From Spartinivicinus ruber (GTDB lineage Bacteria > Pseudomonadota > Gammaproteobacteria > Pseudomonadales > Zooshikellaceae): 64,000 nt of DNA. The notes under the pieces are model-generated. The model made no database searches, was not told the origin of the DNA, and was given only the letters and a program-made list of their open reading frames with translations. Below, one piece after another: positions 1,056 through 55,127 of this stretch (its first letter is position 1; each line of letters starts with the position of its first letter). The translations under genes and the position numbers were made by a program. Location: positions 4,556,354 through 4,620,353 of the forward strand of contig NZ_CP048878.1 in the NCBI RefSeq assembly GCF_011009015.1, written 5' to 3'.

Positions 1056-1058
1056 TTT

Positions 1059-1098: not shown

Positions 1099-1154
1099 CA
1101 CTCTATTATCTTCGTTGCATCCTGTATATAGATAGGAATACAACGTTGGATGCA

Positions 1155-2059: not shown

Positions 2060-3436
2060 ATGAAGCAGGAAGAGTTAATTTCGACCATCGTTAGTCCAAT
2101 AGGAACGATGAATGTGCTGTCAAGCAGTGAAGTCAGCAAGTTACAAGATACTACCCTGGGTGGACTCTATAAACTATTCCGTCAATGCGCCTTAGCCGCA
2201 CTAAACTGTGACGAACACTCTGACAACCCTTACAAAATTCTTGAACAACATAAAAGCTTTGATATTCGCATTATTCAGGAACACCGAGGCCTTAAACTGG
2301 AATTGATTAACGCCCCCGCAGATGCGTTTGTTGATGGTAAGTTGATAAAAGGTATTCGCCAAAACCTTTTTTCAGTGGTAAGAGACATTCTTTATGTAGC
2401 GAATGAAGTCACTGCAGGCAATCAATTTGACATTAATAAATCAGACGATATTAGTAATATGGTTTTCCATATGCTCCGTCATGCCAGAGCATTTGTCCCT
2501 AAAGTCCTGCCAAACATCGTCGTATGCTGGGGAGGACACTCTATTTCTGACTACGAATATAAATATACTAAACGTGTAGGTTACCAGCTTGGCCTGAGAG
2601 GTTACCATATTTGTACCGGGTGTGGCCCAGGAGCAATGAAAGGTCCTATGAAGGGAGCTACAATTGGTCATGCCAAACAACGCACGAGTGATAGCCGTTT
2701 TATTGGCATAACAGAGCCAGGGATTATTGCCGCTGAATCACCTAATCCCATAGTGAACGAACTCATCATTATGCCAGACATAGAAAAGCGTCTGGAAGCG
2801 TTTGTTCGGTTTGGCCATGGGATTGTCGTATTTCCTGGTGGGCCAGGCACTTGTGAAGAAATCCTATATATTTTAGGTATTTTGCTGCACCCTAAAAACC
2901 AACATATACCATTTCCTCTAATTTTTACAGGTCCAGACAAGTCAAAAGAATATTTCAAACAAATAGATAATTTTATTGGAAAAACGTTAGGCCCAAAAGC
3001 ACAGCGTCGTTATAAAATAATTATTGAAAATCCACCTGCGGTTGCTAAGGAAATGAAACAAGGACTTGAAGAAATTTCTAAATTTCGTAAACAAACAGGT
3101 GACGCCTATCATTTTAATTGGTTACTCACTATTGATCATGAGTTTCAACTTCCCTTTGAGCCAACTCATCAAGAAATGGCCGCACTAAAATTAACTAAAG
3201 ACCAGCCAACTTATATGTTAGCAGCAAACCTTAGACGGGCAATGTCAGGTATTGTTGCTGGCAATGTTAAGGAAGTAGGTATTAAAGCTATAGAAGAACA
3301 TGGCCCTTTTGAATTAACAGGTGACCCTGAATTAATGGCTGACATCGACCAGCTACTGCAGTCTTTTGTTGAACAACACCGCATGAAACTGCCTGGCAGC
3401 CATTATGAACCTTGTTATAAAATCATGAAAAATTAA
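2060..3436 (+). CDS. ppnN: Pyrimidine/purine nucleotide 5'-monophosphate nucleosidase PpnN (YgdH, LOG family)
   Basis: 458 residues, close to the roughly 454 of E. coli PpnN. The LOG-family signature PGGPGTCEE sits at residues 259-267 in the central Rossmann domain, preceded by GCGPGAMKGPMKGA. N- and C-terminal extensions flank the central domain, as in the PpnN architecture (DUF4478 - lysine-decarboxylase-like - DUF3412). The family cleaves nucleoside monophosphates to base and ribose 5-phosphate and is known to be stimulated by (p)ppGpp in E. coli. It is monocistronic here. Confidence 0.92.
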   Translation: MKQEELISTIVSPIGTMNVLSSSEVSKLQDTTLGGLYKLFRQCALAALNCDEHSDNPYKILEQHKSFDIRIIQEHRGLKLELINAPADAFVDGKLIKGIRQNLFSVVRDILYVANEVTAGNQFDINKSDDISNMVFHMLRHARAFVPKVLPNIVVCWGGHSISDYEYKYTKRVGYQLGLRGYHICTGCGPGAMKGPMKGATIGHAKQRTSDSRFIGITEPGIIAAESPNPIVNELIIMPDIEKRLEAFVRFGHGIVVFPGGPGTCEEILYILGILLHPKNQHIPFPLIFTGPDKSKEYFKQIDNFIGKTLGPKAQRRYKIIIENPPAVAKEMKQGLEEISKFRKQTGDAYHFNWLLTIDHEFQLPFEPTHQEMAALKLTKDQPTYMLAANLRRAMSGIVAGNVKEVGIKAIEEHGPFELTGDPELMADIDQLLQSFVEQHRMKLPGSHYEPCYKIMKN

Positions 3437-3504
3437 AATATACGCTTTATAAAGAATTTTCACTACAACTTGCTCCTCAAATGAGCTAATTGATTACCGC
3501 TTAT

Positions 3505-4662
3505 TTAAGGAGCAGAACGAGCAGCCAAGGCATCTTTATCTTTTAGCTTGAGCTCTATATTTTTCTTTTCTGATCTGAGCTCACCTATTTCCAGTTTAAG
3601 CTTTGTTATTTCATCACAAAAATCTTGTTGCATTTTTCTCATAGATACATCATCCTGTAACGCATCTTTCAAAATATGCTCAGTATTCTGTTGCAATCGA
3701 TTGCTTTTCATTTTCAAATGAACAATTGTGGTATCCTTTTCTTTTACCTCTTCTTTAAACTTATCAAGCTGATATCGCGAGGCTTCTAATAATTCATTAT
3801 ATTCAGCTACTCTTTCCATTTGCTTGGCATCATTACCTGAAAGCCCTTTCTGTATACAATTATTAATTTCAGTTTTATTCAGCGCAAGCAATTGCTCCTG
3901 CTGCTTCATCCTTTTATTACAACACTGTAGTTCTTTTTTGTATTGCTCTATTACAAGCTTTGTATAGTTATTCCCATACTCATTTTCACCCGCAACAAGT
4001 AACTTTTCAGGTAGAGCAACATTTTGAAACAAGGCTCGATACTGATTAAAAAGCTCTTCATAAAACTGACTTGTGGTAAACTCTGTTTTTAACAAGCCAG
4101 CTTCTAATGAAAATAGTGCTTTTCGCAATGCTAATACTGCCTGACGAGACAAATGGGCAATAGCAACTTCATCAAGACCCACTTGCCCATAAAAACGTTC
4201 TTGTTGAGTTGTTGTTTCTACTTGCTTAATCAAATGATCATGAAAACCAAATTGCTGTTTATCAACAATCGTATTAAAACTCTCTTGTAGCTGACATAAA
4301 AGCTGATTATAAGCTTGAAAGATTAAATCCTCTGTTTTACTTGAAATAGATTGATTTTGATCAATATCAGCAAAGCCCTTTTGTTCTGCCAACATGACTT
4401 GTTTTCGAAAGGCAAGAATATGTCGTTTGGTAATTCGTTGCTGCAATATGTCACTAAAGCTGACTTCTCCCACTCGATCTAAACTATGTTGTGCTTCATT
4501 TATACAAGCTTCAATATAATTAAGCTGACTATTCTCAGAGGATTTAGTTTGAAATCTCGCTATTCTTTTGAATTTAACTAACTGCCAACCAAGCACTATT
4601 ACCAAGATCATCAGCAATAACGCAAAATTTGCCACTGCCACTAGCCATATTGAGTTTTGCAT
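3505..4662 (-). CDS. Membrane-anchored coiled-coil protein of unknown function
   Basis: 385 residues. A single hydrophobic segment spans about residues 6-26, followed by a basic stretch (KFKRIARF), which suggests a cytoplasmic body anchored in the inner membrane. The C-terminal third, from about residue 240, is rich in Lys, Glu, Gln and Leu with heptad-like spacing and should form a long coiled coil. No catalytic motif was recognised. It lies alone between ppnN and the peptide transporter operon. The function is not assigned. Confidence 0.6.
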   Translation of the reverse strand: MQNSIWLVAVANFALLLMILVIVLGWQLVKFKRIARFQTKSSENSQLNYIEACINEAQHSLDRVGEVSFSDILQQRITKRHILAFRKQVMLAEQKGFADIDQNQSISSKTEDLIFQAYNQLLCQLQESFNTIVDKQQFGFHDHLIKQVETTTQQERFYGQVGLDEVAIAHLSRQAVLALRKALFSLEAGLLKTEFTTSQFYEELFNQYRALFQNVALPEKLLVAGENEYGNNYTKLVIEQYKKELQCCNKRMKQQEQLLALNKTEINNCIQKGLSGNDAKQMERVAEYNELLEASRYQLDKFKEEVKEKDTTIVHLKMKSNRLQQNTEHILKDALQDDVSMRKMQQDFCDEITKLKLEIGELRSEKKNIELKLKDKDALAARSAP

Positions 4663-4820
4663 TCAGCCTCCCTGCGAGAGTTAGTGCTATATATAAAATA
4701 TACTCCCCACTCTCGTTATTCTCAAACAAGGAAACGCCTTCCCTCAATATTATTTATAGCCAAAAAAAATTGGTAATGCTCTAAAAGCAAGCTTAAAAAA
4801 TAAGTAATAAAAAAAACAAA

Positions 4821-4852
4821 AAGGCGCCACAGTATAGTAACTGTAGCGCCTT
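4821..4852 (-). terminator. Rho-independent terminator of the peptide transporter operon
   Basis: The arms AAGGCGC.ACAGT and ACTGT.GCGCCTT pair with one mismatch around a 6-base loop. On the minus strand the stem is followed directly by a run of T interrupted once. It sits 27 bases beyond the stop of the last transporter gene. Confidence 0.85.
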
Positions 4853-4878
4853 CAATATAAGCTTAAGAAATATTTCTG

Positions 4879-5814
4879 TTAGATTTCTTTATACAGCTTA
4901 GGATTTAATACATCTCTGAGCCAATCACCCAGTAAATTAATTGTTAGCACTAAAACTACTAACACAAGGCCTGGAATAACAGTGATCCACCAGGAGCCAC
5001 TTAATAAATATTCAAAACCACTACGGATTAATGAGCCCAACGAAGGAGTCGTTTCTGGCATTCCTAACCCTAGGAATGAAAGCGCTGCTTCACTCATAAT
5101 AGCATTGGCTACTTGTACAGTGGCAATAACAAAGATAGGCGGTAAACAGTTAGGCAAAATATGTCTCACCATAATACGTAGTCCACCAAAACCCATTACT
5201 TGGGCGGCCTGAACATACTCTTTTTCTTTTTCAGCTAATACCGAAGCCCGAATGGTACGAGCAAACTGAGGCCACTCAGAAATACCAATAATAAGTACTA
5301 ACAAATAAATTGCTACTTCATGAAACGTTTCTGTACCCAATTGGGCCTGAAAGAAAGTGGACACTACAATTGCAACCATCAGTGTTGAAAAAGATAATTG
5401 CACATCTGCCAAACGCATTAGAAAACTTTCTAACCGACCTCCGTAGTAACCTGCTGCAAGCCCTATGGCAATGCCTAACACTGATTGTAATAATACGGCA
5501 AAGAGCCCAATAATTAGTGAGGTGCGAGTACCATATAAAATAGTACTCAACATATCCCGCCCTTGGTTATCTGTACCCAACAAAAATCGTTCATCGGCCT
5601 CACCCTCCTGCCATACAGGTGGTAACGTGGAGTCCATGACGTCAATACTTGCTAAATCATAAGGGTTAAAGGGAGCAATTAATGGTGCCATTACAGCAGC
5701 AAGCACCATTATAAAGAATATGATTGCGGAACCAATTGCAACTTTATCTTTTTTAAAATAGTAAAGCAGATCAGAGTTTTTAAATTGCTGCCAGGCTGAT
5801 GTTGACGTGCTCAT
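4879..5814 (-). CDS. Peptide ABC transporter permease, DppC type
   Basis: 311 residues with an N-terminal membrane segment (about 27-50), then the usual cluster of five further segments. The cytoplasmic EAA-like loop appears around ARTIRASVLAEKEKEYVQAA, the part that contacts the ATPase. The C-terminal NLLGDWLRDVLNPK is characteristic of DppC/OppC permeases. Its start overlaps the end of the DppB-type gene by four bases (ATGA), so the two are probably translationally coupled. It is the last gene of the operon. Confidence 0.9.
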   Translation of the reverse strand: MSTSTSAWQQFKNSDLLYYFKKDKVAIGSAIIFFIMVLAAVMAPLIAPFNPYDLASIDVMDSTLPPVWQEGEADERFLLGTDNQGRDMLSTILYGTRTSLIIGLFAVLLQSVLGIAIGLAAGYYGGRLESFLMRLADVQLSFSTLMVAIVVSTFFQAQLGTETFHEVAIYLLVLIIGISEWPQFARTIRASVLAEKEKEYVQAAQVMGFGGLRIMVRHILPNCLPPIFVIATVQVANAIMSEAALSFLGLGMPETTPSLGSLIRSGFEYLLSGSWWITVIPGLVLVVLVLTINLLGDWLRDVLNPKLYKEI

Positions 5815-43635: not shown

Positions 43636-43655
43636 AATCAATTAATTTAAATTGC

Positions 43656-43675
43656 TAGGCGGTTCACGACCGCCT
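43656..43675 (+). promoter_or_regulatory. Hairpin between the two RHS genes
   Basis: AGGCGGT and ACCGCCT pair around TCACG, with GGCCAGGTTTTAAATTTATTTT following. It could be a weak terminator or a control element setting the ratio of the two RHS products. Confidence 0.45.
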
Positions 43676-43711
43676 TGGCCAGGTTTTAAATTTATTTTGA
43701 GTAGTAATATT

Positions 43712-46381
43712 ATGCAGTTTAAACAGACTTTATTAGCCGGGGCGTTATCGTTATTTATTTCCCCGTTAGCGCTTTCAGGTGCGAGCAGTACCACCAGTTA
43801 TCAATACAACGATCAGGGCAATGTTACGCAAATTGATGGCCCACGTACAGATGTGCAGGACATTACCCAATTTAGCTACAACGACAAAGGGCAATTAGCC
43901 GAAGTTGTTAATGCATTAGGGCATTCCACACAATTATCTAACCATAATGTCTTTGGTAATCCCCAGAAAATTACCGATGCGAATGGCACAGTCACTCACC
44001 TGTCTTATGATGAGATGGGCCAATTAACCCAATCCATTATTAAAAGTGCAGCGGGCGATATCACTACGCGCTTTGAATACGATGCTATTGGCCAAGTGAC
44101 GGCGGTTTATTTACCGAATGGTAGCGAACTGCATTATGAATACGATGGAGCGAAACGTTTAACCGCTATTCAAAATGGCTTAGGCGAACGCATCGAATAT
44201 CAACACGATAATGCCGGGAATATTACCAAGCAGGTTGTTAAATCTTCAACCGGTGCAGTAGTGAGCCAATTTAGCCAGGCTTATGATGAAATAAGTAGAC
44301 TGTTAAAGTCTGTTGGCGCTAATGGCCAAACCAGCCGGTTTGAATACGATAAAAACAGCAATACAACAGGTGCTACTAACCCTCGTAATTATAAAAGCGG
44401 TAATGCATATGATGCGTTAAATCGGTTAGTCACTAGCACTGATGCATTAAACCAAAACACCCAATTTAAATACGACTCGCAAGATAATTTAACCCATGTC
44501 ACTGACCCGCGTGGTGTTACCACTACTTATCAATATGATGGCTTAGGCCGTTTAGTTAAAGAAATTAGCCCAAGCAGTGGTGAAACGGTTTATAGCCATG
44601 ATGCCGCCGGTAACATTACTCAAAAAGTCGATGGCCGTGGTGTTGTTACCAAATACAGCTATGACGCTTTAAACCGTCAAACCAGCCGGTCTTATCCTGC
44701 TAGCCCTGAGTTGAATGTTACTTATCTTTATGATGGCACCAACGATGGTAACAAAGGCATTGGCCGTTTAACTGGCATTCAGGACCAGTCAGGCTTAATT
44801 GCTTACCAATATGATGACCGGGGCAATGTCACCAAAACTATGCGCTCGGTTAGCTTGAATGGTAAGGATCAATTCTTTGGCGTGGCTTATGGCTACAACC
44901 TGGCTAATCAGCTGACCCGTATTCAATACCCCTCTGGTTTAACCATCAGCTACCAACGCAATAGTAATGGGCAAGTTAACCAAGTCACGGGACAATTTAA
45001 GGGAAGTGATCAGGTCATTAATTTAGCCAACAATATTGGCTATGTACCCTTTGGCCCTGTACAACAATTGACGTGGGGTAACGGTAAAACCTTAAACCGC
45101 CAATACGATCAGGATTTACAGTTAATTCAGCAAACGGTACAAGGCATCCAAGAGCTGAATTACCAGTACGATCCTAATGGTAATATTACCGGCATTGATA
45201 ACTTATTAGCCCAGCAAAATAACAGTAGCTACGGTTACGATGCCTTAGACCGCTTAATCGAAGAGCAAGCCAACTACGGTCGTAAAACCTATGAGTATGA
45301 CCCGGTCGGTAACCGCACCAAGCGTACAACCGAAAAAGCCGGTAAAACTGAAACCCAAAAACTAACTTATGCCGAAAACAGCAACCGCTTAATCAAGCAT
45401 GAAGAAAGCAATGTCAGTTATGACGGCATGGGCAATACCCAAAATAATGGTAATGGTTTACAGCTCCAATATGATGGTCAAGGGCGACTAAAAGCCGTTG
45501 TTAAAGGTGGGAATACACAAGCTGAATACCGTTATAACGCGATTGGCGAGCGAATCGTTAAAGAGCTTGGCAACCAAACCGTTATTTATAGCTACGACCA
45601 AAACGGGCAACTGTTAGAAGAAGCTTATTACAACGCTAGCAATAAACTGTTCTACACCCGTAACTATGCGTGGTTAGGTACTCAGCCCATAGCTATGTTA
45701 GAGCAATGGCTAAACGACAAAGGCCAAAGCACAAAACAGCAAGTTGCGTATATCCACAGTGATCACCTCAACACCCCACGGGTTGCTACCAATAAAGCAG
45801 GCCAAGCAATCTGGCAGTGGCAATCAGATGCGTTTGGGGTTGGCGTAGCCAATGAAGATGTGGATGGCAATGGCCAGAAAACAGTGGTTGCATTGCGTTT
45901 TCCTGGGCAGGTTTTTGACCCAGAGTCAGGGCTACACTACAACTATTATAGAGACTACGATCCAACACTTGGACGGTACATCGAAAGTGATCCGATTGGG
46001 TTAAATGGTGGCTTAAATACTTATGCTTATGTTGATGCTAACCCAGTTTTGTATGTAGATCCATTAGGTCTTGTAAAGTGTACTTGTAAGGCAAAAAACT
46101 CAGGAGGTGTTGGAGAAGTAAATGGAGTTAAGCAGTGTGCCTACTCTTGTACCTCTGAAGATGGGCTGGAGTTTAACTTTACTGGTGATGGCCATAATCT
46201 AACACATGGTGATGTGTGCAGAGGAGCAGATTGGGATACTACAGTACGAGGTGAGAATCTTTCAAATGTAACTAGAAGTTTAGATAATTTCCAAGTGGAT
46301 ACTGATGATTATTGGTTTTGGCAAAGTAACTTTCAAAAACAAACAGAAAGTGCTTATAATAAAGCAAAAGATTCTAAATAA
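43712..46381 (+). CDS. Secreted RHS-repeat protein with variable C-terminal tip (candidate toxin)
   Basis: 889 residues from the ATG at 43712, with its own Sec signal peptide (MQFKQTLLAGALSLFISPLALS). Many YD repeats occupy residues 25-700. The RHS-associated core follows: YIHSDHLNTPRVATN, SGLHYNYYRDYDPTLGRYIESDPIGLNGG and VDPLGL ending at residue 787. Beyond that boundary lies a 102-residue tip with several Cys (CTCKA, CAYSC, DVCRGADWD) that I do not recognise. In RHS toxins this position holds the exchangeable toxic domain, released by core autoproteolysis. A membrane protein encoded just downstream is the likely immunity partner. Confidence 0.85.
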   Translation: MQFKQTLLAGALSLFISPLALSGASSTTSYQYNDQGNVTQIDGPRTDVQDITQFSYNDKGQLAEVVNALGHSTQLSNHNVFGNPQKITDANGTVTHLSYDEMGQLTQSIIKSAAGDITTRFEYDAIGQVTAVYLPNGSELHYEYDGAKRLTAIQNGLGERIEYQHDNAGNITKQVVKSSTGAVVSQFSQAYDEISRLLKSVGANGQTSRFEYDKNSNTTGATNPRNYKSGNAYDALNRLVTSTDALNQNTQFKYDSQDNLTHVTDPRGVTTTYQYDGLGRLVKEISPSSGETVYSHDAAGNITQKVDGRGVVTKYSYDALNRQTSRSYPASPELNVTYLYDGTNDGNKGIGRLTGIQDQSGLIAYQYDDRGNVTKTMRSVSLNGKDQFFGVAYGYNLANQLTRIQYPSGLTISYQRNSNGQVNQVTGQFKGSDQVINLANNIGYVPFGPVQQLTWGNGKTLNRQYDQDLQLIQQTVQGIQELNYQYDPNGNITGIDNLLAQQNNSSYGYDALDRLIEEQANYGRKTYEYDPVGNRTKRTTEKAGKTETQKLTYAENSNRLIKHEESNVSYDGMGNTQNNGNGLQLQYDGQGRLKAVVKGGNTQAEYRYNAIGERIVKELGNQTVIYSYDQNGQLLEEAYYNASNKLFYTRNYAWLGTQPIAMLEQWLNDKGQSTKQQVAYIHSDHLNTPRVATNKAGQAIWQWQSDAFGVGVANEDVDGNGQKTVVALRFPGQVFDPESGLHYNYYRDYDPTLGRYIESDPIGLNGGLNTYAYVDANPVLYVDPLGLVKCTCKAKNSGGVGEVNGVKQCAYSCTSEDGLEFNFTGDGHNLTHGDVCRGADWDTTVRGENLSNVTRSLDNFQVDTDDYWFWQSNFQKQTESAYNKAKDSK

Positions 46382-46428
46382 TACAGATGGGTCACTTTAG
46401 ATAGAATATTAAACTGATAGCTATAAAT

Positions 46429-46956
46429 TTGTTATATGTAGTTGTCAGTTACTTTCTGAAAGTGGATTTCCGAAATTTTATAGCCTATAAAGTTTATTGT
46501 AAATTTATGCAACTTAACATGACATTATGGCTGTTAATGAATACAGTTTTTATATATGTATATGCTATATATGATTTAAGCTTGGTATTTCAGTTAGGAA
46601 TGTGGACAGCAGGTGTTACTAGTAAGTATTGGGGAGGGGGATTAATTATAGGACAAGCCTTACTTTTAATCTCGATGTTTAAAGGGAGTATGAGACCATT
46701 AGCAATTTTTATTAACTCCCCTTTAATTGTTGTCTTGTATATAAAGCTAATTTATTATTTGATTTTGGGTTTTTTGATTAGCTTTTCTGAGAGTATCTTT
46801 TTTGGATTTATGCTAAATGCCTCTGTTGTTTTTTTATATTCTTTGCTTGCTGTAAGAGTACTTAGAATCAAAGTCTATAGTTTCTGTATTCTTGTAATGG
46901 CTTTTTCTCTTATACCAATTTCTTATCAGTTTGTGCGCTATACAATGTTACCTTAA
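46429..46956 (+). CDS. Multi-spanning membrane protein, candidate immunity protein
   Basis: 175 residues if begun at TTG 46429, or 149 from the ATG at 46507; neither has a clear ribosome site. About four to six hydrophobic helices are predicted by eye, with hardly any soluble part. It directly follows the RHS tip-encoding gene by 47 bases and shares its AT-rich composition. This is the standard place for an immunity gene. A membrane immunity protein would suit a toxin acting at or across the inner membrane. No family was recognised. Confidence 0.6.
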   Translation: MLYVVVSYFLKVDFRNFIAYKVYCKFMQLNMTLWLLMNTVFIYVYAIYDLSLVFQLGMWTAGVTSKYWGGGLIIGQALLLISMFKGSMRPLAIFINSPLIVVLYIKLIYYLILGFLISFSESIFFGFMLNASVVFLYSLLAVRVLRIKVYSFCILVMAFSLIPISYQFVRYTMLP

Positions 46957-47389: not shown

Positions 47390-47758
47390 TTACCCACTGA
47401 GTTTCGTATAATAGGTAAGCACTTCTGAATAAACACCATTAGCGCCAACTTTGATAAGGCCACTACCCTTAATTGGTGTACCCGGAATGCCCCACCAACA
47501 CCAGGCAGTAAAAATACTTCCTTCTTCTTTGGTAAGCACTTCCGATGCCTCTACTAGTGGATTTGGTAGTTGACCGTCGCAAAGAGAAGCTACTACTTTC
47601 TTTAATTCTTCAAAATATTCCATAAATTCACTTTTCGAAACCATGCCATGATTGGGGTCATCAAGAGTGTAGTCTGTCGCTGTTGCTTTCAAAATTAGTT
47701 CTGCATCTCCCTTACCCCAACCTTCCAGATATGTATTTAAATGTTCTGAAGCACTCAT
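47390..47758 (-). CDS. SnoaL/NTF2-like protein (cassette gene)
   Basis: 122 residues forming one cone-shaped NTF2-like fold: HLNTYLEGWGKGDAELILKATATDYTLDDPNHG at the start and a Trp-rich strand WCWWGIPGTPIKGSGLIKV. Members are small enzymes or binding proteins; the substrate is not readable. AGGAAG precedes the ATG. It lies ten bases after the 68-residue gene, both downstream of attC-like site A, and so is probably part of a two-gene cassette. Confidence 0.75.
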   Translation of the reverse strand: MSASEHLNTYLEGWGKGDAELILKATATDYTLDDPNHGMVSKSEFMEYFEELKKVVASLCDGQLPNPLVEASEVLTKEEGSIFTAWCWWGIPGTPIKGSGLIKVGANGVYSEVLTYYTKLSG

Positions 47759-47768
47759 TTTAATCTTC

Positions 47769-47975
47769 CTAAGTTTTAGCTTTAATCGTCTTAATGCTTT
47801 GAATTACAGGATCTTTTAGCTCTTGGTCAAATTGTGCAAAAAGAACCCTTTTTGTCTCTAAAAAAGATATGTATTCCACCACATCTTGCTTTTCAGGATT
47901 ATTAAGGAGCGATTTAACAGCACCACCGATAGTTACTATGTCGCCAACTAAAGATACTAACGTAAGGAATCTCAT
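47769..47975 (-). CDS. Small hypothetical protein (cassette gene)
   Basis: 68 residues with a hydrophobic N-terminal third (FLTLVSLVGDIVTIGGAV) and a charged remainder. A good GGAGAG ribosome site supports it. It is the first gene after attC-like site A on the minus strand and is followed closely by the NTF2-like gene. The function is unknown. Confidence 0.6.
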   Translation of the reverse strand: MRFLTLVSLVGDIVTIGGAVKSLLNNPEKQDVVEYISFLETKRVLFAQFDQELKDPVIQSIKTIKAKT

Positions 47976-48002: not shown

Positions 48003-48077
48003 GAATAACGCCTCGCATCAGCGGCTAAACCGCGAGCGCAGCGAGTGGTTTGGTCCGGCTGCATGTGCTTGTTATAT
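48003..48077 (-). other. attC-like recombination site A
   Basis: On the minus strand it begins TATAACAAGC and ends GAGGCGTTAT, the layout of integron attC sites. The arms pair imperfectly: GCACATGCAGCC with GGCTGATGCGAGGC-type complement, and CCAAACCA with the TGGTTT-type complement around a central loop. AAC and GTT core triplets are in place. It lies four bases beyond the methyltransferase stop. Confidence 0.8.
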
Positions 48078-48081
48078 TTAT

Positions 48082-48912
48082 TCAATTTTTATGGGCGATT
48101 ATCTCCACGGGGGCAATATAATCAGCTGTGATATTGCCGATCATATTCTTAATTTTAATTGAAGTACTTTCCTTCATTAGCGTATGTAATCCAAGCGGAG
48201 GTGGGCCGCCACTTGCCTCTGTTTTTTCAAGTACCTTCCTGAAAAAATCCAGCGCAAAATCACGACGATTATTTTCTTTAGAAACTTCAAATCCAGCATC
48301 ATTCAGAGCTTGTCTGTATTGGTTGGGTGTAGCTAACCTGCTAGTACTCTTTTCTGTTGCCCAAGGGACCGGGTAGGTCAGGTCACCCTCGTTGATGCGC
48401 ATTACATCATAGACACCGAAAGATGATCCCTGTCGTAACACTCGAAAAATTTCCCTGAAAAGCAATTCTTTGTCTTCGATGTTCATACCTACATGTAACA
48501 TGTAGCCGCCGTCAAACAATTCATCCTGAAAGGGCATCGCAGTTGCGCTCCCCTGTTGAAGAAAAACCTTTTTATCCAGATTGACCCAGGCACATAGTGA
48601 CTTTCCTGCTTCAACGTATTCCTCTGTCAAATCTATCCCAGTAACATGGTTGTTGTACTTGTCTGCCACAAATCGTGCCGCGCCACCCAGACCACAACCT
48701 ACATCAAGTATATGGTGTTTCTCGGAAAAGCTGAGCTGGTTTAGCAAATTTTCAGTTGCTAACCGCCCCCCAATATGAAATTCGTCAACAGGTGCAAGAT
48801 CTTCAATTGATATGTTATCAATCGTTTTACCGAGTTTTTTAATTGATGCGCGAATCGCTTGCAGTAAATAACCGTGCAAGTAGTGTTCGGATATTGCTTT
48901 ATCACTTGTCAT
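48082..48912 (-). CDS. Class I SAM-dependent methyltransferase (cassette gene)
   Basis: 276 residues from the ATG at 48912 (MTSDKAIS). A longer reading begins inside attC-like site B and is not real. Motif I is ILDVGCGLGGAARFVA, followed by VTGIDLTEEYV (acidic ribose-binding residue) and a post-motif FDGGYMLHVGMNI. It resembles small-molecule methyltransferases of the UbiE/sarcosine-methyltransferase kind. The acceptor is unknown. It is enclosed by attC-like sites B (upstream) and A (downstream), that is, a single-gene cassette. Confidence 0.88.
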   Translation of the reverse strand: MTSDKAISEHYLHGYLLQAIRASIKKLGKTIDNISIEDLAPVDEFHIGGRLATENLLNQLSFSEKHHILDVGCGLGGAARFVADKYNNHVTGIDLTEEYVEAGKSLCAWVNLDKKVFLQQGSATAMPFQDELFDGGYMLHVGMNIEDKELLFREIFRVLRQGSSFGVYDVMRINEGDLTYPVPWATEKSTSRLATPNQYRQALNDAGFEVSKENNRRDFALDFFRKVLEKTEASGGPPPLGLHTLMKESTSIKIKNMIGNITADYIAPVEIIAHKN

Positions 48913-48941: not shown

Positions 48942-48989
48942 ATATAACGCCGCATTCAGCGGCTTGTCCGCTGCAATGCTTTGTTATGC
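48942..48989 (-). other. attC-like recombination site B
   Basis: A compact 48-base site: on the minus strand GCATAACAAAGCATT, then GCAGCGG, loop, CCGCT, and GAATGCGGCGTTATAT. The GCATT/AATGC and AGCGG/CCGCT arms pair with an extra base on one side, the asymmetry that gives attC its direction. The stop codon of the kinase gene lies inside it, as is common in cassettes. Confidence 0.85.
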
Positions 48990-50038
48990 AATTTATTGTA
49001 TGAAATGACAAAAGAAAATTTTGAATACGGAATGTTATTCAATCTGACACTTGAGCCTTCGACATTTACAGCTAGATTAATATTATGAAGTTCGCAAATC
49101 AGTTTTGCAAAATAGAGTCCATAGCCACCGCCACTAGTATCAACTAGTTCAGCGTTTTTCCCTCTAATTTTTTTGTTAAAGATTTTATGCTCTTCTCCAT
49201 CCCTTAGGCTAGGACCAATCGACTCGACTTTTATTTCAAATGAGTCACTGTGCTCTTTGAAAGCTACTTCAATAGTTTGGTTGCTAGGGGAGTATTTAAT
49301 GGCATTCTCTAACAATACATGAGGTACGAAATCAAATATTGGAAACATATCGATATTCGTATGTAGACGACCTTTAAAAGGGGATATTCGAACTCCGGCA
49401 TCTCTTGCGTATATTTCCAAGCAATGCGAAGCTTTTTGGAATTTCTGAAACACGGACGCCTGAAATGGTGTAGATGCTGTTATGATTTTTGGATTGCTTT
49501 CGAAGTCATATATATTTAGACGATTTGTGATCGAAGAGCTTGATGCGAACACTGTTTTCATTAGTTTTTCATTATCTAAACTGCAAAAATCTTTAGAGGT
49601 TAGGTATTCCTCAGAACTCCTCTTAATGATCAAATTATATTTCCTAACCTCATGTAAACAGAAATCCACAAGATCCTTATCAAATTCTGCTTGAACTTCG
49701 CCTTCAAAAATCTCGCGCTCAATTGACTTTGAATTTGACACGCTTTCAAGAATGACATTCGGAGGTATCGTTGGAAGAAAGGAGCTAGAATTTTTAATCT
49801 TATTTTTTGTGTAATACCCAGCTATTCTTACTCCGGAATATATACTTTCACCCGAGTTGTATGAAGACAGTCCAGCGGGGCATTCATGAAATCCTTTTAA
49901 ATTCTTTATTCTTTCATAGTGTTTTTTACACGTTTTCTTATTTTGTTTCAAACACACATCCGAGACGCTTGAAAAGCAACCGCCTTCCAGCTGTTCCGTT
50001 TCTACATTCCACACTGGAATTGCCGATATTCTACTCAT
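48956..50038 (-). CDS. Histidine kinase with a four-cysteine N-terminal region (cassette gene)
   Basis: 360 residues. The N-terminal 60 residues hold Cys21, Cys29, Cys37 and Cys53 (the last in FHECPAG), spaced as a possible metal or Fe-S site. An H-box-like LHEVRKYN places the phosphorylatable His at 129. The ATPase domain has the N-box PHVLLENAIKYSP (Asn245), a degenerate G1 (VESIGP) and G2 GGGYGLYFAKLICELH. No membrane segment is present, so it is cytoplasmic. Its start overlaps the response-regulator stop by four bases (ATGA), marking translational coupling. The last residues and the stop lie in attC-like site B. The signal sensed is unknown. Confidence 0.85.
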   Translation of the reverse strand: MSRISAIPVWNVETEQLEGGCFSSVSDVCLKQNKKTCKKHYERIKNLKGFHECPAGLSSYNSGESIYSGVRIAGYYTKNKIKNSSSFLPTIPPNVILESVSNSKSIEREIFEGEVQAEFDKDLVDFCLHEVRKYNLIIKRSSEEYLTSKDFCSLDNEKLMKTVFASSSSITNRLNIYDFESNPKIITASTPFQASVFQKFQKASHCLEIYARDAGVRISPFKGRLHTNIDMFPIFDFVPHVLLENAIKYSPSNQTIEVAFKEHSDSFEIKVESIGPSLRDGEEHKIFNKKIRGKNAELVDTSGGGYGLYFAKLICELHNINLAVNVEGSSVRLNNIPYSKFSFVISYNKLHNKALQRTSR

Positions 50039-50574
50039 GCTCCAAACACCATTTTAAACAAAATACTAGCTATAAAGCTGGATATTACATCTCTAATATC
50101 ACCTTCCAAGCCCCTTAAAGTGGAATTTTTTGCAAATTTATCTTTATCACCCTTTAATACAGCTTCAATAAATTCTTGCTCTAACTGAAATACAGTCTTA
50201 ATTGGGACTTCTTTTTCAAGCAAAAAGGTTCTCATCCGCTTCCATTGCTCAACAGGCGAAACCACTTTACTTATGGTTTGGTCAAGCAAGGTAACCCATG
50301 TATCCGAATCTACATCTTTCGTTAACGTAAAATCAGCTAAAGAGAAAAATTTATTATAAGTTGCATCAAATTGTTGACCGGTATAGGCAATCACCACTTT
50401 TTCAGGATAGTGACTCTTGATTTCTTCAATGATATGCCCACCTTCATATATGGAGCCAAAACTTTTACCAACTCCTTTGATATCACAAATAACAACTGGG
50501 TAATCCATAACCGCTTTAATATCTTCAATATCGTTTAAAACACGAATATTAAAATTATGATTTCTAATAATTTT

Positions 50575-51605
50575 CCTAATTATCATCATACCTAAGCTAT
50601 ATTTAGTAGCTTACCTGGTAGTGGAGGTGTTCTCAGTGCTACAAATGCTAGCCTAGGAATAAATTCTACTAAGCTAAATCTTCGATTAAATCGATACTGA
50701 AATTCAGCAAGATAACGTTGTGCATATTTAGCGCGAATAGCATGATAAGTACTACGTAAAGCACTTTTTAAGTTTCCAAGGATGGTGTTAACCCAATAAA
50801 ATTCAGGTTCCTCTACTGATGCACGACCACCACCGCATACAATTTTATCATGAAGACAACCTGCTTCTATGACACCATTAAAACAGGCCAGTCCATCGGA
50901 GATTACGGTACTGCCCTTGGCCAAATTCTGCCTACTCCAAGCCGTTATCTCTTCTTTATTAAACCCTTTTAAAATGCTCAGTTTAATTCGTGTCGGTTGA
51001 CCTTGTTTTGTTGTTTCTACGGCTGCTACAAAAGGTATTTTCCCATCTGCTCCCCTACCTCTTTTGCAACCTGTACGCTCACCACCAAGATAGGCATCAT
51101 CAATTTCAATAAAACCCGACAATTGCTTGGTGCCTTCTCTTTCTTGCATCACTTTCATGAGCTTATGTTTCATTCTCCAGGCAGCTTGATAGGAAATACC
51201 TAAATGGCGATGTAATTCTATGGCTGATATACCTTTTTTGTCTTGGGAGATCAAATACATCCCTTGGAACCAAGTCTTTAATGGTAATTTGGTTGATTCA
51301 AAGATAGTACCTGCAGTTACAGATGTTTGCTGGTGACATTTATAGCACTGCTGAAGCTTTCTAGTAGTGAGTTGACAGCATTTGTCGTATCCACAATTGG
51401 GGCACTGAAAACCTTCTGGCCATCGCAATTTGTATAAGGTATTAAAGCATTGTTCTTCTGTACCATATTGTTTGAGAAACTCGTTTAAACTCAGGCCTTT
51501 TTGAAATTGAACTTTGTTGATAGCCATTATTTATACCTTCTCAATTAAGTTTCCATGCTGTTCAAATATACAGCAGTTAATGGCTTAGGTATAGTGATAA
51601 TTAGG
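50575..51605 (-). mobile_element. IS1595-type insertion sequence, copy 2
   Basis: 1031 bp with the same terminal repeats as copy 1, inverted. The 8-bp duplication ATAATTTT lies at 50567-50574 and 51606-51613. It interrupts the response-regulator gene. The different target repeats show that the two copies inserted independently. Confidence 0.93.
50592..51527 (-). CDS. IS1595-family transposase, copy 2
   Basis: 311 residues, identical to the product at 40585-41520, with the same zinc ribbon and DDE domain. Complete identity points to recent duplication or gene conversion. Confidence 0.93.
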   Translation of the reverse strand: MAINKVQFQKGLSLNEFLKQYGTEEQCFNTLYKLRWPEGFQCPNCGYDKCCQLTTRKLQQCYKCHQQTSVTAGTIFESTKLPLKTWFQGMYLISQDKKGISAIELHRHLGISYQAAWRMKHKLMKVMQEREGTKQLSGFIEIDDAYLGGERTGCKRGRGADGKIPFVAAVETTKQGQPTRIKLSILKGFNKEEITAWSRQNLAKGSTVISDGLACFNGVIEAGCLHDKIVCGGGRASVEEPEFYWVNTILGNLKSALRSTYHAIRAKYAQRYLAEFQYRFNRRFSLVEFIPRLAFVALRTPPLPGKLLNIA

Positions 51606-51685
51606 ATAATTTTTTCATATTCTAAACCCCCCTCTCTGTCAGGCTAGTTGTCGTTTTTATTCACTGAGATGACGACAGATAACTG

Positions 51686-52168
51686 ATGGCTAAATATACC
51701 AAACAGCAAAAAGAAAATATCTTAAAGCTATTGCTCCCACCCGAAAATAAATCAGTCCCAGTGGTACACAAAATGACTGGCATTCCTCAGTCAACCCTGC
51801 ATACTTGGAAAACCAAAGTGCGAAGTCAATCTGCCAACATGCCGAAAGAAACATCAAATCAAAGCTGGTCATCAGAACAAAGGCTTAATGTGATCATTGA
51901 GACAGCGGCCTTATCTCAAGCAGAGCTAGCAGCCTATTGCCGAAAAAAAGGGTTGTATGTTGAGCAAGTTGAGCAGTGGAAACAGGCATTTATTCAGCCA
52001 GAGCAACCCTCCCAGGAGCTAAAGAAAAGCTTGCAAGTGGAAAAGCAGCGGTGCCAACAACTTGAAAAAGAGCTAAAGCGAAAAGAAAAAGCACTGGCCG
52101 AAGCCGCGGCCCTGTTAGTCCTTCAAAAAAAAGCTCAGTCAATCTGGGGACCGGACGAGGAAGCCTAA
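51686..52168 (+). CDS. IS3-family transposase OrfA
   Basis: 160 residues with an N-terminal helix-turn-helix (MTGIPQSTLHTWK), a second HTH-like segment and a Leu/Lys/Glu coiled coil at the C terminus, as in IS3-type OrfA proteins. It overlaps the OrfB frame. Confidence 0.85.
   Translation: MAKYTKQQKENILKLLLPPENKSVPVVHKMTGIPQSTLHTWKTKVRSQSANMPKETSNQSWSSEQRLNVIIETAALSQAELAAYCRKKGLYVEQVEQWKQAFIQPEQPSQELKKSLQVEKQRCQQLEKELKRKEKALAEAAALLVLQKKAQSIWGPDEEA
52125..52132 (+). promoter_or_regulatory. Probable programmed -1 frameshift site (A8)
   Basis: An A8 run in orfA. A -1 shift here passes into the orfB frame, which is open from this point to 53211 (SKKSSVNLGTGRGS and onward). This is the known way IS3 elements make the OrfAB transposase. 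Confidence 0.75.
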
Positions 52169-52338
52169 CGTCGTATGCGGATAGGCAACAAACAGTTCAG
52201 TTAATTGGGGAAGCCACAACTGCAGGGGCTCGGCAATTTAAGGCCTGTGAAGTATTAGGGTTAACCCCGCGCACTTATCAACGGTGGCAGCAAGGCGGTG
52301 AGCTACAACCGGATGGCCGCACCACTGCACAGCGTCCA

Positions 52339-53211
52339 TTGCCGCCTAATAAGCTGCCTCCCAATGTTCATCAACAGATGCGAGAAACGCTGAATTCACC
52401 GGAGTTTGCTGACCTCCCACCTTCTCAGATTGTGCCTAAATTAGCAGATCAAGGTGAGTATATTGCCAGTGAAGCCAGCTTTTATCGGCTCATGCGGGCA
52501 GAAGGGTTATCAACCCATCGAGGGAAGACCCAATCTCGTCAACCCAAACCGAAAACCACCCACACGGCGACAGGCCCTAATCAACTTTGGTGCTGGGATA
52601 TCACTTGGTTGCCAGGTCCCGTCACCGGCATCTTTTTTTACCTGTATTTGATCCTTGATGTTTTCAGCCGCAAGGTGGTTGGCTGGGAGGTGCACGATTG
52701 TGAGCGTAGTAGCCTAGCGGCAGACTTAATACAGAAAGCCTTCTGGCGGGAAAATCTCCATAAAATTCACCAGCAGCCCCTGATATTACATTCAGATAAT
52801 GGGAGTCCAATGAAGGGAAGCGCTTTACAAGTCAAACTCGCTGAACTTGGTATTGAGCCTTCTTATAGTCGACCGCGAGTTAGCAATGACAATGCTTATG
52901 CAGAGTCCATATTTAAGACCACTAAATACCGACCAGATTTCCCTCACCAAGGGTTTACCTCATTAGAAAGCGCTCAACGGTGGGTTGATCAATTTGTTCA
53001 TTGGTATAACCATGAGCATCAGCATAGTGGATTAAAGTTTGTAACACCGGTACAACGCCATACAGGTGAAGACCTAGTTATTTTAAGCCGGCGGAAACAG
53101 GTTTATGAGCAAGCTAAAGCAGCTTCCCCTAACCGATGGAGTGGGAATATACGAAACTGGGAGTTGGCAGATGAAGTCCACTTAAACCCTGAGAGAAATC
53201 AAACTCGTTAA
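52339..53211 (+). CDS. IS3-family transposase OrfB (DDE integrase domain)
   Basis: 290 residues from the first ATG, but the frame is open back to the A8 slip site, so the true product is probably an OrfAB fusion with about 70 more residues. The rve-type core has Asp in CWDITWLPGP, Asp in LILHSDNGSPM and Glu in NAYAESIFKTTKYRP, the DDE triad. The C terminus has WYNHEHQHSGLKFVTP. Confidence 0.9.
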   Translation: MPPNKLPPNVHQQMRETLNSPEFADLPPSQIVPKLADQGEYIASEASFYRLMRAEGLSTHRGKTQSRQPKPKTTHTATGPNQLWCWDITWLPGPVTGIFFYLYLILDVFSRKVVGWEVHDCERSSLAADLIQKAFWRENLHKIHQQPLILHSDNGSPMKGSALQVKLAELGIEPSYSRPRVSNDNAYAESIFKTTKYRPDFPHQGFTSLESAQRWVDQFVHWYNHEHQHSGLKFVTPVQRHTGEDLVILSRRKQVYEQAKAASPNRWSGNIRNWELADEVHLNPERNQTR

Positions 53212-53584
53212 TATCCATTTAAAACTGTGCAACTCCCCTCTTTAATTGAAGCTGCTGAGGATGGATGCTTTGCATCGCAAGGCGTCCACCAGAAGGAGCA
53301 ATGGGTGTTGTCTGTGTTATTAATAATTAGCCCTAAATTGATTATTAATATTTATTATGCCTCACGTTTTGAGATAGCTCGATGAAGATAAGAAGATAAC
53401 ACGACAACTACGTTGACAAACACCGACCCTGATCATCAATGCACAACATTGAAACTGAAGATCTTTCAATTTTTCTTGACTGAGTAACGGTTTTCAGTTC
53501 ACTCAGTTGTCTTATTTTCCCAAATATGTACATAAATTACCTTTAGGAGCATGGAATGATCGGCATAGAAGCTTGGAACGACTG

Positions 53585-53640
53585 GCATAACGCCTTGGTA
53601 AGGTGCGCCGCCAGGCGTCACCTTGAACAACTTGTTATGT
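53585..53640 (-). other. attC-like recombination site C
   Basis: On the minus strand ACATAACAAGTTGTTCAAGGTG, central CGCC-type loop arms, then CACCTTACCAAGGCGTTATGC. CAAGGTG pairs with CACCTT and CGCCTGG with the complementary GGCG arm. It lies 13 bases beyond the stop of the 191-residue cassette gene and 52 bases before the response-regulator start, so it forms the upstream boundary of the two-component cassette. Confidence 0.83.
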
Positions 53641-53652
53641 TTATCGTACTAA

Positions 53653-54225
53653 CTAAGCACCTGTAAACCAATAAAATAGGGAAAGGGCTCTCTTTGATTC
53701 AAATATTACCATGTAATCATTCCAATCATCTGTTGCGACAGTTCCTGGAAGGCTTACCTTGTTAATAAGCTCCTTAGGTAGCCGGGAACTCACGAACTTA
53801 CCATTTTTGTAATAGCCAACTTTATGATCCTTTCCCCAAGCCATTTTTTCGGGATTTTCTAAAACCAATGATTGGCATTCATTTATTATTTCATTTGTTC
53901 TTTCTGTATCAGAATCAGTAGTTACACGAAAATCACAACCGTTAAGAAACTCTGTGAAGCAGCTAAACAAGCTATCTTGCTTTTCTCTAGATGACATTTT
54001 CTCATAGTAGTCTTCGGAGAATTCATACTCTTCAATAGATTTCCAAAGCAGTGCAAATTGAACTTCCGCACTTGGAGGAAGTGGGTATTTGAGTTCCACA
54101 ACAAATAATGAATACATACCCTCATCCCCAGTCTCTAAACTGTGAATTGTAGTGAAATACTTTTTTTCGAAAAAAGCATCTGAAATATCACTAGAAGCCT
54201 GTATTAAACTATCTGTTGAAACCAT
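53653..54225 (-). CDS. Hypothetical cassette protein
   Basis: 190 residues from the ATG at 54225 (AGGATGG six bases before); an ATG at 54231 adds two. It is acidic and soluble, Asp/Glu/Ser-rich, with KYPLPPSAEVQFALLWKSIEEYEF and a C-terminal DDWNDYMVIFESK. No domain was recognised. It is followed directly by attC-like site C, so it is a typical unknown integron cassette gene. Confidence 0.7.
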   Translation of the reverse strand: MVSTDSLIQASSDISDAFFEKKYFTTIHSLETGDEGMYSLFVVELKYPLPPSAEVQFALLWKSIEEYEFSEDYYEKMSSREKQDSLFSCFTEFLNGCDFRVTTDSDTERTNEIINECQSLVLENPEKMAWGKDHKVGYYKNGKFVSSRLPKELINKVSLPGTVATDDWNDYMVIFESKRALSLFYWFTGA

Positions 54226-54253
54226 TTCCATCCTAAAACATAACTATTAATGA

Positions 54254-54291
54254 ACGTCACTATGACGTAATACATTACGTTGTAGTGACGT
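54254..54291. repeat. Near-perfect 38-base palindrome upstream of a cassette gene
   Basis: ACGTCACTA-TG-ACGTAAT and ATTACGT-TG-TAGTGACGT pair except for a symmetrical two-base mismatch. A further TGACG/CGTCA pair follows at 54300-54316. It may be an operator, a promoter-associated hairpin, or a folded remnant of a recombination site. Confidence 0.7.
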
Positions 54292-54331
54292 AATATATTG
54301 CGTCATGCTGACGTATAATTCCCTTTATACT

Positions 54332-55127
54332 TCAATTAATTAAACTAACACTCGTTATATACCTCGAAGCACTTACCGAATGCTTGGCCTGCTTCACCAC
54401 CCACCTACAATCAACACCAGCCCTTACACCTTGAATAATCACAGGCCACTCAGCTATTAACTTAGGGTTACCCACTACAGTTATACTTAAACTGGCTTCT
54501 GTATAATTTAAGCCACTTAGCTTGACTTTGGCGCTGGCTTGGGCTGCTTCCTTGGTTGGATATACAATTTTAATAGTATAGGTCGGTTCGCCATTACCAA
54601 CCTTAACATGCTCTGTCTTGCCACCTTCAGCACTATGATATTTAGCCATCACACTTTTATAATATTGCCTGTCAGGGGCTTTTAAATTCCATTTATTAAT
54701 TTTAGAAATTGTTATTGCTGACAATTGTTTACCGGTGGCTGTTTTGGTTTTCCCTCGCTCAACAAACACTAAATGTTCCATCATCGGCTTAACAATCGCC
54801 CCATGATCTAACGCAATGCGACTTAAAAAATTAATATCAGATTCTTCTGTCTGGTCTATGTGATCAATGACAATAGGCGTAAATACTTCTGCAATTTTAG
54901 GCTTCAACCCATTGTCATTAGCCACGGTGGTTACAATATCTACCAGCTTTTTTTGATGCCAGGAACGTGATTTAGGGCTACGGAGTTGATCACGAAGGTT
55001 GGCACCTTTGGCCTGAATGGTCATTTGGTTAGGAGGGCCAGAGAGTGACACCCCATCAATAATAAAATCACCCATATGAATATTCTGGATGGCAACTGAT
55101 AACTTGGTACCTTTGGCGGGTATGGGT
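54332..55127 (-). pseudogene. Phage late control protein D (gpD-like), N-terminally truncated
   Basis: A 247-residue frame begins at ATG 55075, but coding similarity (PIPAKGTKLSVAIQNIH) extends in frame to a stop at about 55128. The body matches the P2 gpD/VgrG-like tail hub: MTIQAKGANLRDQLRSPKSRSWHQKKLVDIV and DINFLSRIALDHGAIVKP. Intact gpD proteins are about 80-100 residues longer at the N terminus. Its 5' end abuts the tape-measure fragment, so a deletion joined the two. Confidence 0.8.

What the first reader, a model, noticed from the sequence alone, without database searches (positions are those of the whole stretch)
48942..53640. A two-component signalling pair carried as an integron-type gene cassette, later split by two insertion sequences
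Seen: attC-like sites C and B enclose a response-regulator gene and a histidine-kinase gene that overlap by ATGA. The regulator is interrupted by an IS3-type element (ACCC duplication) and by IS1595 (ATAATTTT duplication). Removing both restores one receiver frame with Asp33/34, Asp71, Thr105 and Lys126. The kinase is soluble with four N-terminal cysteines (21, 29, 37, 53) and an LHEVRKYN H-box; the regulator ends in an unfamiliar helical domain of about 80 residues. Known: cassettes usually carry single small genes, so a whole kinase-regulator pair of about 1.8 kb is unusual. Inference: the pair may be a self-contained mobile redox/metal or stress-sensing module.
Basis: partly seen in the sequence, partly recalled or inferred. 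Interest (0 to 1): 0.78.

Follow-up and report, generated by a model that had tools for sequence, protein, structure and literature searches.

The report
Kinase–regulator pair in integron cassette
A two-gene bacterial signalling pair, possibly part of an anti-virus alarm, is packaged as a swappable integron gene cassette at the end of a decayed prophage tail operon, where two jumping genes have broken its regulator gene.

Summary
A covariance model built from 29 attC sites of other genomes hits the window at three places, including both flanking sites. A stronger test also passes: each cassette's starting heptamer should be the reverse complement of its own attC R'' box, and 3 of 3 window cassettes match perfectly (24 of 34 over all arrays tested; 3.2 expected). 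The regulator–kinase cassette spans 4,643 bp, 1,804 bp without IS1595 and an IS3-type element. The array begins at a conserved attI-like site behind a decayed phage-tail gene D. The genome's five clear attC clusters all follow gene D copies, and no integron integrase was found over cut-off.

The pair belongs to a sparse family: eleven adjacent regulator–kinase pairs, two on predicted conjugative plasmids. The regulators match PADLOC's phage-defence candidate PDC-M43A; a Shewanella plasmid pair is a clear PDC-M43 member. Nine regulators end in a hydrophobic helix; the other two have an N-terminal one instead. I read the pair as a kinase-triggered, membrane-acting anti-phage alarm. The cassette is near certain, the defence role is inferred, and the window copy is broken.

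The parts
54332..55075 (-). remnant of a phage tail gene (gene D / baseplate hub, GPD), last gene of a decayed tail operon directly upstream of the array
   Evidence: PF05954 4.7e-9; phrog_52 tail protein 2e-83; 91% identical to an intact copy over residues 36-309, with 3 stops inside the match
54241..54331 (-). leader with ACGTCA/TGACGT palindromes ending in the attI-like core GTGACGTTCATTAATAG^TTA (54241-54260), start of the cassette array
   Evidence: core found in 12 of 19 sources, from 5 genomes, with up to 4 substitutions allowed; first cassette's start matches its own R''
53653..54231 (-). cassette 1 gene, 192 aa, unknown function
   Evidence: ORF; only a sub-threshold Pfam match (DUF3192, E 0.15); no NCBIfam, PADLOC or PHROGs family at the limits used
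53585..53640 (-). attC site B (end of cassette 1, upstream border of the pair's cassette)
   Evidence: R1 42.2 bits, E 1.5e-7
48948..53590 (-). cassette 2: regulator-kinase cassette, 4,643 bp with both insertion sequences, 1,804 bp without them and their duplications
53426..53533 (-). regulator gene, 5' piece (36 codons, includes the Asp33/Asp34 acidic pair)
   Evidence: aligns to residues 6-36 of the intact L079 regulator
51630..53425 (+). IS3-type element (ORFs 51686-52168 and 52339-53211), ACCC target duplication
   Evidence: rve 8e-22 for the second ORF; boundaries and duplication; 1796/1796 identical to a second copy
51606..51629 (-). regulator gene, short middle piece left between the two insertion sequences (with duplicated target bases)
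   Evidence: one frame reads GLEYEKII, compared by eye with L079 GLPYENIL
50575..51605 (-). IS1595-family element (transposase 50592-51527), ATAATTTT target duplication
   Evidence: DDE_Tnp_IS1595 2.1e-39; ends and duplication
50035..50574 (-). regulator gene, 3' piece: rest of the receiver (DIKGVG phospho-acceptor motif, TG, K) plus ~80-residue C-terminal region ending in a hydrophobic segment
   Evidence: aligned to L079 42-218; PDC-M43A 1.5e-13; mean hydropathy 1.94 over the last 17 residues
48956..50038 (-). histidine kinase, 360 aa, soluble by inspection (not computed), Cys-bearing N-terminal sensor region, H-box LHEVRKYN, HATPase_c
   Evidence: HATPase_c 8.1e-9; alignment of 11 kinases
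48942..48989 (-). attC site C (end of the pair's cassette; overlaps the kinase stop codon)
   Evidence: R1 46.5 bits, E 1.4e-8
48082..48912 (-). cassette 3 gene: class-I methyltransferase (start taken at the first ATG; the longest ORF begins at 49011)
   Evidence: Methyltransf_11 6.3e-17 on the longest ORF
48003..48077 (-). attC site A (end of cassette 3)
   Evidence: R1 56.3 bits, E 5.8e-11
47390..47975 (-). trailing genes after site A (68 aa; 122 aa, weakly SnoaL-like) with no further attC found

Best explanation
The locus is an integrase-less integron array that begins at an attI-like site at the end of a decayed prophage tail operon. Its second cassette carried a kinase-regulator pair related to the PADLOC phage-defence candidate PDC-M43. 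Proposed mechanism: the cytoplasmic kinase senses an infection-linked cue through its N-terminal region, autophosphorylates on the H-box histidine and phosphorylates the receiver aspartate of the regulator. The regulator has no recognised DNA-binding domain; phosphorylation releases or oligomerises its hydrophobic helix so that it acts at the cell membrane and arrests the infected cell. Shown: cassette boundaries, array, insertion sequences, receiver and kinase motifs, conserved pairing, hydrophobic segment at one end or the other. Inferred: trigger, membrane action, defence, transcription from the tail operon. In this genome the regulator is broken, so the system is probably inactive here.
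For: attC model hits and cassette-signature test. Eleven adjacent regulator-kinase pairs, same order and strand. The Shewanella plasmid pair matches PDC-M43A/B over nearly full length at 2.5e-88 and 5.2e-132, and the other 9 relatives' regulators have PDC-M43A as best PADLOC family, at 26.6-62.2 bits. The window regulator piece scores 49 bits to M43A; of six control regulators three match it, at most 31.8 bits; in 293 genomes of the order the next best hit after the window is 31.4 bits, and 0 of 14 control genomes ring. Mobile contexts: predicted conjugative plasmids, relaxase-like and tyrosine-recombinase-like neighbours by eye. Membrane output: 9 of 11 regulators end in a segment that is their most hydrophobic stretch (for the window, of the 3' piece); the 2 without it have a hydrophobic N-terminal segment. 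Model of L079: receiver fold plus helices 147-160, 165-180, 200-217, mean pLDDT 69; solved receivers match by sequence and by fold. Another attI-like array in this genome carries a TIR-type (PDC-S35, 1.5e-31) and a SLATT_5 (2.3e-50) cassette gene. Integrons as stores of defence cassettes are reported (PMC12409362, passages).
Against: I found no anti-phage activity reported for PDC-M43; PDC means candidate only (PMC11514479, passages). PADLOC holds few receiver models: two ordinary receivers (L028, L032) also have M43A as best family, so only the score separates them, and L115's regulator (26.6 bits) falls inside the control range. The kinase match to PDC-M43B is not discriminating: 161 of 369 genomes at 1e-8 and 8 of 14 controls ring, with scores up to 66.1 bits against 63.6 for the window kinase; control kinases reach 54.9 bits. 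The window pair is only distantly related to the PDC-M43 core. Of 10 other proteins in or beside attC arrays scanned, 2 matched PADLOC. No defence island was demonstrated around the relatives. The hydrophobicity comparison had no control set of ordinary regulators, and L077 and L114 score only 1.33 and 1.01. C-terminal model confidence is low (block means 49-57 from residue 181 on). Foldseek's best hits include PorX, whose alignments run past the receiver but at rmsd 9-15, so a PorX-like helical linker is not excluded. A kinase model was never collected.
Confidence: 0.5

Rival explanations
1. An ordinary two-component sensor of cytoplasmic stress, redox or metal whose regulator is tethered to the membrane and controls a host process; the pair travels as accessory adaptation, not defence.
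For: 5 of 11 kinases keep a C...C...C[PS]xG cysteine pattern in the sensor region (window, L074, L077, L114, L115). Mobile stress-adaptation genes are common on plasmids (general knowledge).
Against: The pattern is incomplete or absent in the other 6, and the closest relative (L079, regulator 66% identical) lacks most of the stretch. No DNA-binding output domain was found; regulator score to a phage-defence candidate above controls.
Confidence: 0.3
2. A toxin-antitoxin-like or addiction module: the regulator is a membrane-active toxin held off by the kinase, stabilising cassettes, plasmids and prophages.
For: Two-gene units with overlapping or closely spaced frames on plasmids and in a cassette; a short hydrophobic end on a small protein; toxin-antitoxin-like neighbours (HigB family at L075; small ORFs resembling such genes by eye at L079).
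Against: A full kinase with conserved His, N and G boxes is an odd antitoxin. The window regulator is broken while the kinase is intact, so the fate of a free toxin is untested here.
Confidence: 0.12
3. The apparent cassette is coincidence: the pair is an ordinary operon that happens to lie between two palindromes.
For: None of the ten relatives' loci has an attC hit; no integron integrase over cut-off was found in the genome.
Against: E 1.4e-8 and 1.5e-7 against an independent model; heptamer-R'' match 3 of 3 in the window; 24 of 34 observed against 3.2 expected by shuffling; kinase end encoded inside the attC.
Confidence: 0.02
4. The attI-like leader is only a conserved 3' tail of the phage gene, not a recombination site.
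For: It directly follows gene D at several loci and shares strings of palindromes.
Against: Sequences diverge after G^TTA; 10 of 11 first cassettes match perfectly there; no gene D was found by tblastn in the fetched stretches of L181 and L187, which have the core.
Confidence: 0.06

Closest known systems
PDC-M43 (PADLOC-DB 2.0.0 phage-defence candidate: M43A receiver protein + M43B kinase)
   Same: Two adjacent genes, receiver first then a kinase; the window regulator's best PADLOC family is M43A; the Shewanella plasmid relative is a near full-length member
   Different: The window regulator ends in a hydrophobic segment, whereas the Shewanella member has an N-terminal one; the window kinase has a longer Cys-bearing N-terminus; the kinase match is not specific
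Detocs (defensive two-component system)
   Same: A two-component system used in phage defence, ending in a non-transcriptional effector (works like)
   Different: Detocs is a three-gene system whose best-described effector is an ATP-cleaving PNP enzyme (PMC11249213, passages). This is a two-gene cassette with no such effector found; homology not tested
Integron cassettes as stores of phage-defence systems (Vibrio chromosomal integrons; mobile integrons)
   Same: attC-flanked small cassettes, some with defence-type domains
   Different: The Vibrio cholerae array holds about 179 cassettes and an integrase. Here arrays with 1-3 detected attC sites sit behind phage-tail genes with no integrase found in the genome. 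Defence-cassette results known to me only through the review PMC12409362 (passages)
Phage-borne integrons and CALINs, e.g. [quoted passage not shown]
   Same: An attI-bearing attC cluster without its own integrase inside a prophage region (PMC9892861, passages)
   Different: M16-3 has an integrase elsewhere in the same prophage. Here none of five related genomes has one at 1e-60, and the platform is repeated behind several gene D copies

Membership tests
integron gene cassette | attC site with R/L box structure at the 3' end of the gene | tested here: met
   Sites A, B, C hit by an independent covariance model, E 5.8e-11 to 1.5e-7
integron gene cassette | gene(s) and attC in the same orientation, cassette start heptamer complementary to its own R'' | tested here: met
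   3 of 3 window cassettes
integron gene cassette | excision or integration by an integron integrase | not testable with these tools
   needs a recombination assay
complete integron | intI gene beside attI | tested here: not met
   7 partial TIGR02249 matches in the genome, best 75.6 bits against a cut-off of 265; none at 1e-60 in the 5 genomes G000-G004
CALIN (attC cluster lacking integrase) | two or more attC sites without an integrase nearby | tested here: met
   three attC sites, no integrase over cut-off
two-component system | kinase with conserved H-box His, N box and G boxes | tested here: met
   aligned His and Asn in 11 of 11 kinases (for L075 searches place different histidines in that column); HATPase_c 8.1e-9, HisKA not matched
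two-component system | receiver with acidic pair, phospho-Asp, Thr/Ser, Lys | tested here: met
   present in the separate pieces, by alignment to intact L079; receiver profile matches solved receivers
two-component system | phosphotransfer between the two proteins | not testable with these tools
   needs purified proteins
PDC-M43 | M43A receiver protein | tested here: met
   window piece 1.5e-13, 49 bits, a distant match; six control regulators at most 31.8 bits, though two of them also have M43A as best family; 0 of 14 control genomes
PDC-M43 | M43B kinase adjacent | tested here: inconclusive
   window kinase 3.8e-18, but ordinary kinases score similarly; adjacency met
PDC-M43 | anti-phage activity | not testable with these tools
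   candidate designation only; no paper in the library names PDC-M43
Detocs | three genes with a PNP-type or other enzymatic effector | tested here: not met
   besides transposase genes, only two genes between attC sites B and C and no such domain in them; I did not check that this PADLOC version holds Detocs models

The most novel reading that the evidence does not exclude
In this bacterial family prophages carry their own attI-like cassette landing site at the end of the tail operon, without an integrase. They acquire and may express exchangeable defence cassettes (TIR-type, SLATT, a kinase-to-membrane-receiver alarm) in this way. The window pair would be a two-component abortive-infection cassette that signals by phosphorelay to a membrane-acting receiver rather than to transcription.
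Probability: 0.3. Interest if true: 0.82.

Novelty: new variant of a known kind. Interest (0 to 1): 0.62.

Why it matters
It would show that a complete phosphorelay, not just a single small gene, can be traded as an integron cassette, and it would link two-component signalling, integrons and phage defence in one unit. The repeated attI-like site behind phage-tail genes, in genomes where no integron integrase was found, makes a testable question of how integrase-less arrays form and whether prophages serve as carriers and promoters for defence cassettes.

Tried and rejected

PDC-M43B similarity of the kinase was considered as proof and rejected, because ordinary kinases match it as well. G294/L072, a 592-aa protein that looks like a chemoreceptor, and the ordinary receivers L028 and L032 were dropped from the family. 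Of 10 genomes with a hit in the phylum search, the window's own and three (G957, G815, G807) were kept; the other six were not examined. L074 is filed as 'Bacteriophage sp.', but its neighbours look like bacterial surface-polysaccharide genes (by eye), so it is not counted as a phage. Single-protein scans of viral contigs found no relatives, nor did the alignment scan. Rfam gave one sub-threshold match near the locus, judged chance. No promoter excess in 53400-54450 (3 found, 3.2 expected). A palindrome scan without a model gave mostly chance hits. The first attC finder was stricter and found fewer sites; the looser one gave 52 candidates, 35 were kept after removing doubtful and near-duplicate ones, and six of the longest were left out by hand. 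The own-genome attC search scored 150 of 824 candidates, so 10 sites is a lower bound; one further weak site (25.4 bits) lies 4.6 kb downstream of another gene D copy (L160). The core in L186 lies downstream of that locus's attC hits and was not used as an array start.

Full report
WHAT IS THERE. The window lies in a 6.69-Mb genome of four contigs. On the minus strand, from high to low coordinate: a phage tail gene D remnant, an attI-like leader, a 192-aa cassette gene, attC site B, a regulator gene cut into three pieces by an IS3-type element and an IS1595-family element, a 360-aa histidine kinase overlapping it by ATGA, attC site C, a methyltransferase cassette, attC site A, and trailing genes.

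IS IT A CASSETTE? I collected attC sites from stretches next to integron integrases of other genomes of the same order: 52 candidates, 35 kept, 29 used. The covariance model built from them hit the window three times, at sites A, C and B, with E-values 5.8e-11, 1.4e-8 and 1.5e-7, and nothing else in 176 kb. A second test does not depend on the model's score. In a true cassette the heptamer at its start (left by the previous recombination) is the reverse complement of the R'' box of its own attC (general knowledge of integrons). In the window this holds for 3 of 3 cassettes, including the regulator-kinase cassette. Over all arrays of this genome and four relatives it holds for 24 of 34, against 3.2 expected when the R'' boxes are shuffled, and none of 20,000 shuffles reached the observed value. 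Nine of the ten imperfect cases are 839 bp or longer, where a site between may have been missed. The cassette is 4,643 bp, or 1,804 bp without the two elements and their duplications.

WHERE THE ARRAY SITS. No integron integrase reaches the curated cut-off in this genome; there are seven partial matches, the best 75.6 bits against a cut-off of 265. None appears at 1e-60 in the five genomes G000-G004 of this family, whereas 63 of the 145 order genomes searched, these five included, have one over the cut-off. The genome has at least ten attC sites at five places. All five lie 459-2,572 bp downstream of, and on the same strand as, a phage tail gene D copy; gene D has ten copies, so the other five copies have no clear attC cluster within that distance, one of them having a weak site 4.6 kb away. 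A naive chance estimate is 1e-14; it ignores that four of the five gene D copies concerned are 89-100% alike, and the distance limit was taken from the data. Between gene D and the first cassette lies a leader with ACGTCA/TGACGT palindromes that ends in a conserved core, GTGACGTTCATTAATAG^TTA, after which the sequences diverge. The core occurs, with up to four substitutions, in 12 of 19 sources searched, from five genomes. Ten of eleven first cassettes match their own R'' exactly at this point. The leader was found in all five genomes of this family and, apart from two marginal hits (E 0.004 and 0.005), in none of the other 327 genomes searched. No gene D was found in the fetched stretches of L181 and L187, which have the core. 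One copy lies in a 36.7-kb contig of the viral collection (8.5 kb of it seen) that carries the same genes, by eye, as this genome's own locus L148. I conclude that it is an attI-like site. In the window the tail operon is decayed: gene D has three stops within its match and the tape-measure ORF is a 187-aa fragment.

THE PAIR AS A FAMILY. The family is sparse: 4 of 369 class genomes at 1e-3, one of them the window's own and one judged a false hit; 10 of 398 phylum genomes at 1e-9, of which four including the window's own were accepted and six were not examined. None of the ten relatives' loci has an attC hit, so the cassette form is known only from this window.

ANATOMY. The regulators have a receiver with a DhxG[VI]G motif at the phospho-acceptor in 10 of 11 (L115 has DVKGVV). 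In a sequence search of solved structures the matched stretches end by profile position 157 of 212, that is in or just after the receiver. A fold search with the L079 model gives receivers; its top hits include PorX over about 200 columns but at rmsd 9-15. The model shows the receiver fold followed by helices 147-160, 165-180 and 200-217 (mean pLDDT 69, low at the C-terminus). In nine of eleven regulators the last 17-20 residues hold the most hydrophobic segment of the protein or, for the window, of the 3' piece (mean hydropathy 1.0-2.0). The two that lack this (L075, L115) have a hydrophobic N-terminal segment instead (1.95 and 2.75). No control set of ordinary regulators was scored for this. 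The kinases share an aligned histidine followed by E, D or N, and the N and G boxes, in 11 of 11; for L075 the two alignments put different histidines in that column. Their N-terminal region varies: a C...C...C[PS]xG pattern in five (window, L074, L077, L114, L115), an apparently related region with fewer cysteines in others, and most of it missing in L079.

WHAT IT PROBABLY DOES. The Shewanella plasmid pair matches PADLOC's phage-defence candidate PDC-M43A and B over nearly its whole length, and the other nine relatives' regulators have PDC-M43A as best family. The window piece scores 49 bits; three of six control regulators match M43A, at most 31.8 bits, and two of them also have it as best family, so it is the score and not the rank that separates them; L115 (26.6 bits) does not clear the controls. 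The kinase match is not informative. PDC is a candidate label (PMC11514479, passages read), and no paper in the library names PDC-M43. Another attI-like array of this genome carries a TIR-type gene (PDC-S35), cut by an identical copy of the same IS3-type element, and a SLATT_5 gene; the other 8 of 10 proteins in or beside arrays that I scanned matched nothing in PADLOC. Integron arrays are reported as stores of defence cassettes (PMC12409362, passages), and integrons and CALINs occur in phages, including an attI-bearing CALIN in a Shewanella prophage (PMC9892861, passages). My reading is a phosphorelay alarm that acts at the membrane; the steps after phosphorylation are inference.

STATE OF THE WINDOW COPY. 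The kinase frame is open and the regulator is broken by two insertions. The IS3-type element is identical over 1,796 bases to a second copy in the genome, which suggests a recent insertion. The pair is probably not working here.

NOVELTY. Two-component defence (Detocs; PMC11249213, passages), defence cassettes and phage-borne attC clusters are each known. I saw no report of a kinase-regulator pair as an integron cassette in the listings of searches; these cover only open-licence papers, and apart from passages of the four papers named above I read listings only.

Noticed in passing
G000:C1 near 84,000; 1,281,000; 1,401,000; 2,681,600-2,686,500; 4,604,000-4,610,000: All five clear attC clusters of the genome lie 0.5-2.6 kb downstream of phage tail gene D copies, behind an attI-like core, and no integron integrase over cut-off was found in the genome.
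   Followed up: yes
L146 4140-9018: Cassette array with a TIR-type gene (CAP12/PDC-S35) interrupted by an identical IS3-type copy and a SLATT_5 gene: defence-type cassette genes in the same genome.
   Followed up: partly
L187 (G004) 431-5561: Seven attC hits behind one attI-like core next to phage-like genes (by eye), in a genome with no integron integrase at 1e-60.
   Followed up: partly
L079 8536-9405: Closest relative's kinase lacks most of the Cys-bearing sensor stretch although its regulator is 66% identical to the window's: modular sensor loss or swap.
   Followed up: no
L074 (MT838345.1): Record filed as 'Bacteriophage sp.' looks like a bacterial surface-polysaccharide locus with the pair inserted beside a dTDP-sugar epimerase-like gene and a partial repeat of it (judged by eye).
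   Followed up: no
window 43652-46956: RHS-repeat protein with a following small ORF on the plus strand, converging on the cassette array; an RHS-like fragment (by eye) also lies beside another attC array (L149 2075-2605).
   Followed up: no
L160 7494-7655 and 2960-3035: A gene D copy with part of the leader but without the attI-like core, followed by an FRG-like gene (by eye) and a weak attC (25.4 bits) 4.6 kb downstream.
   Followed up: no
L149 4022-4411: Cassette gene matching DUF3574 and, more weakly, an S-adenosylmethionine lyase family.
   Followed up: no
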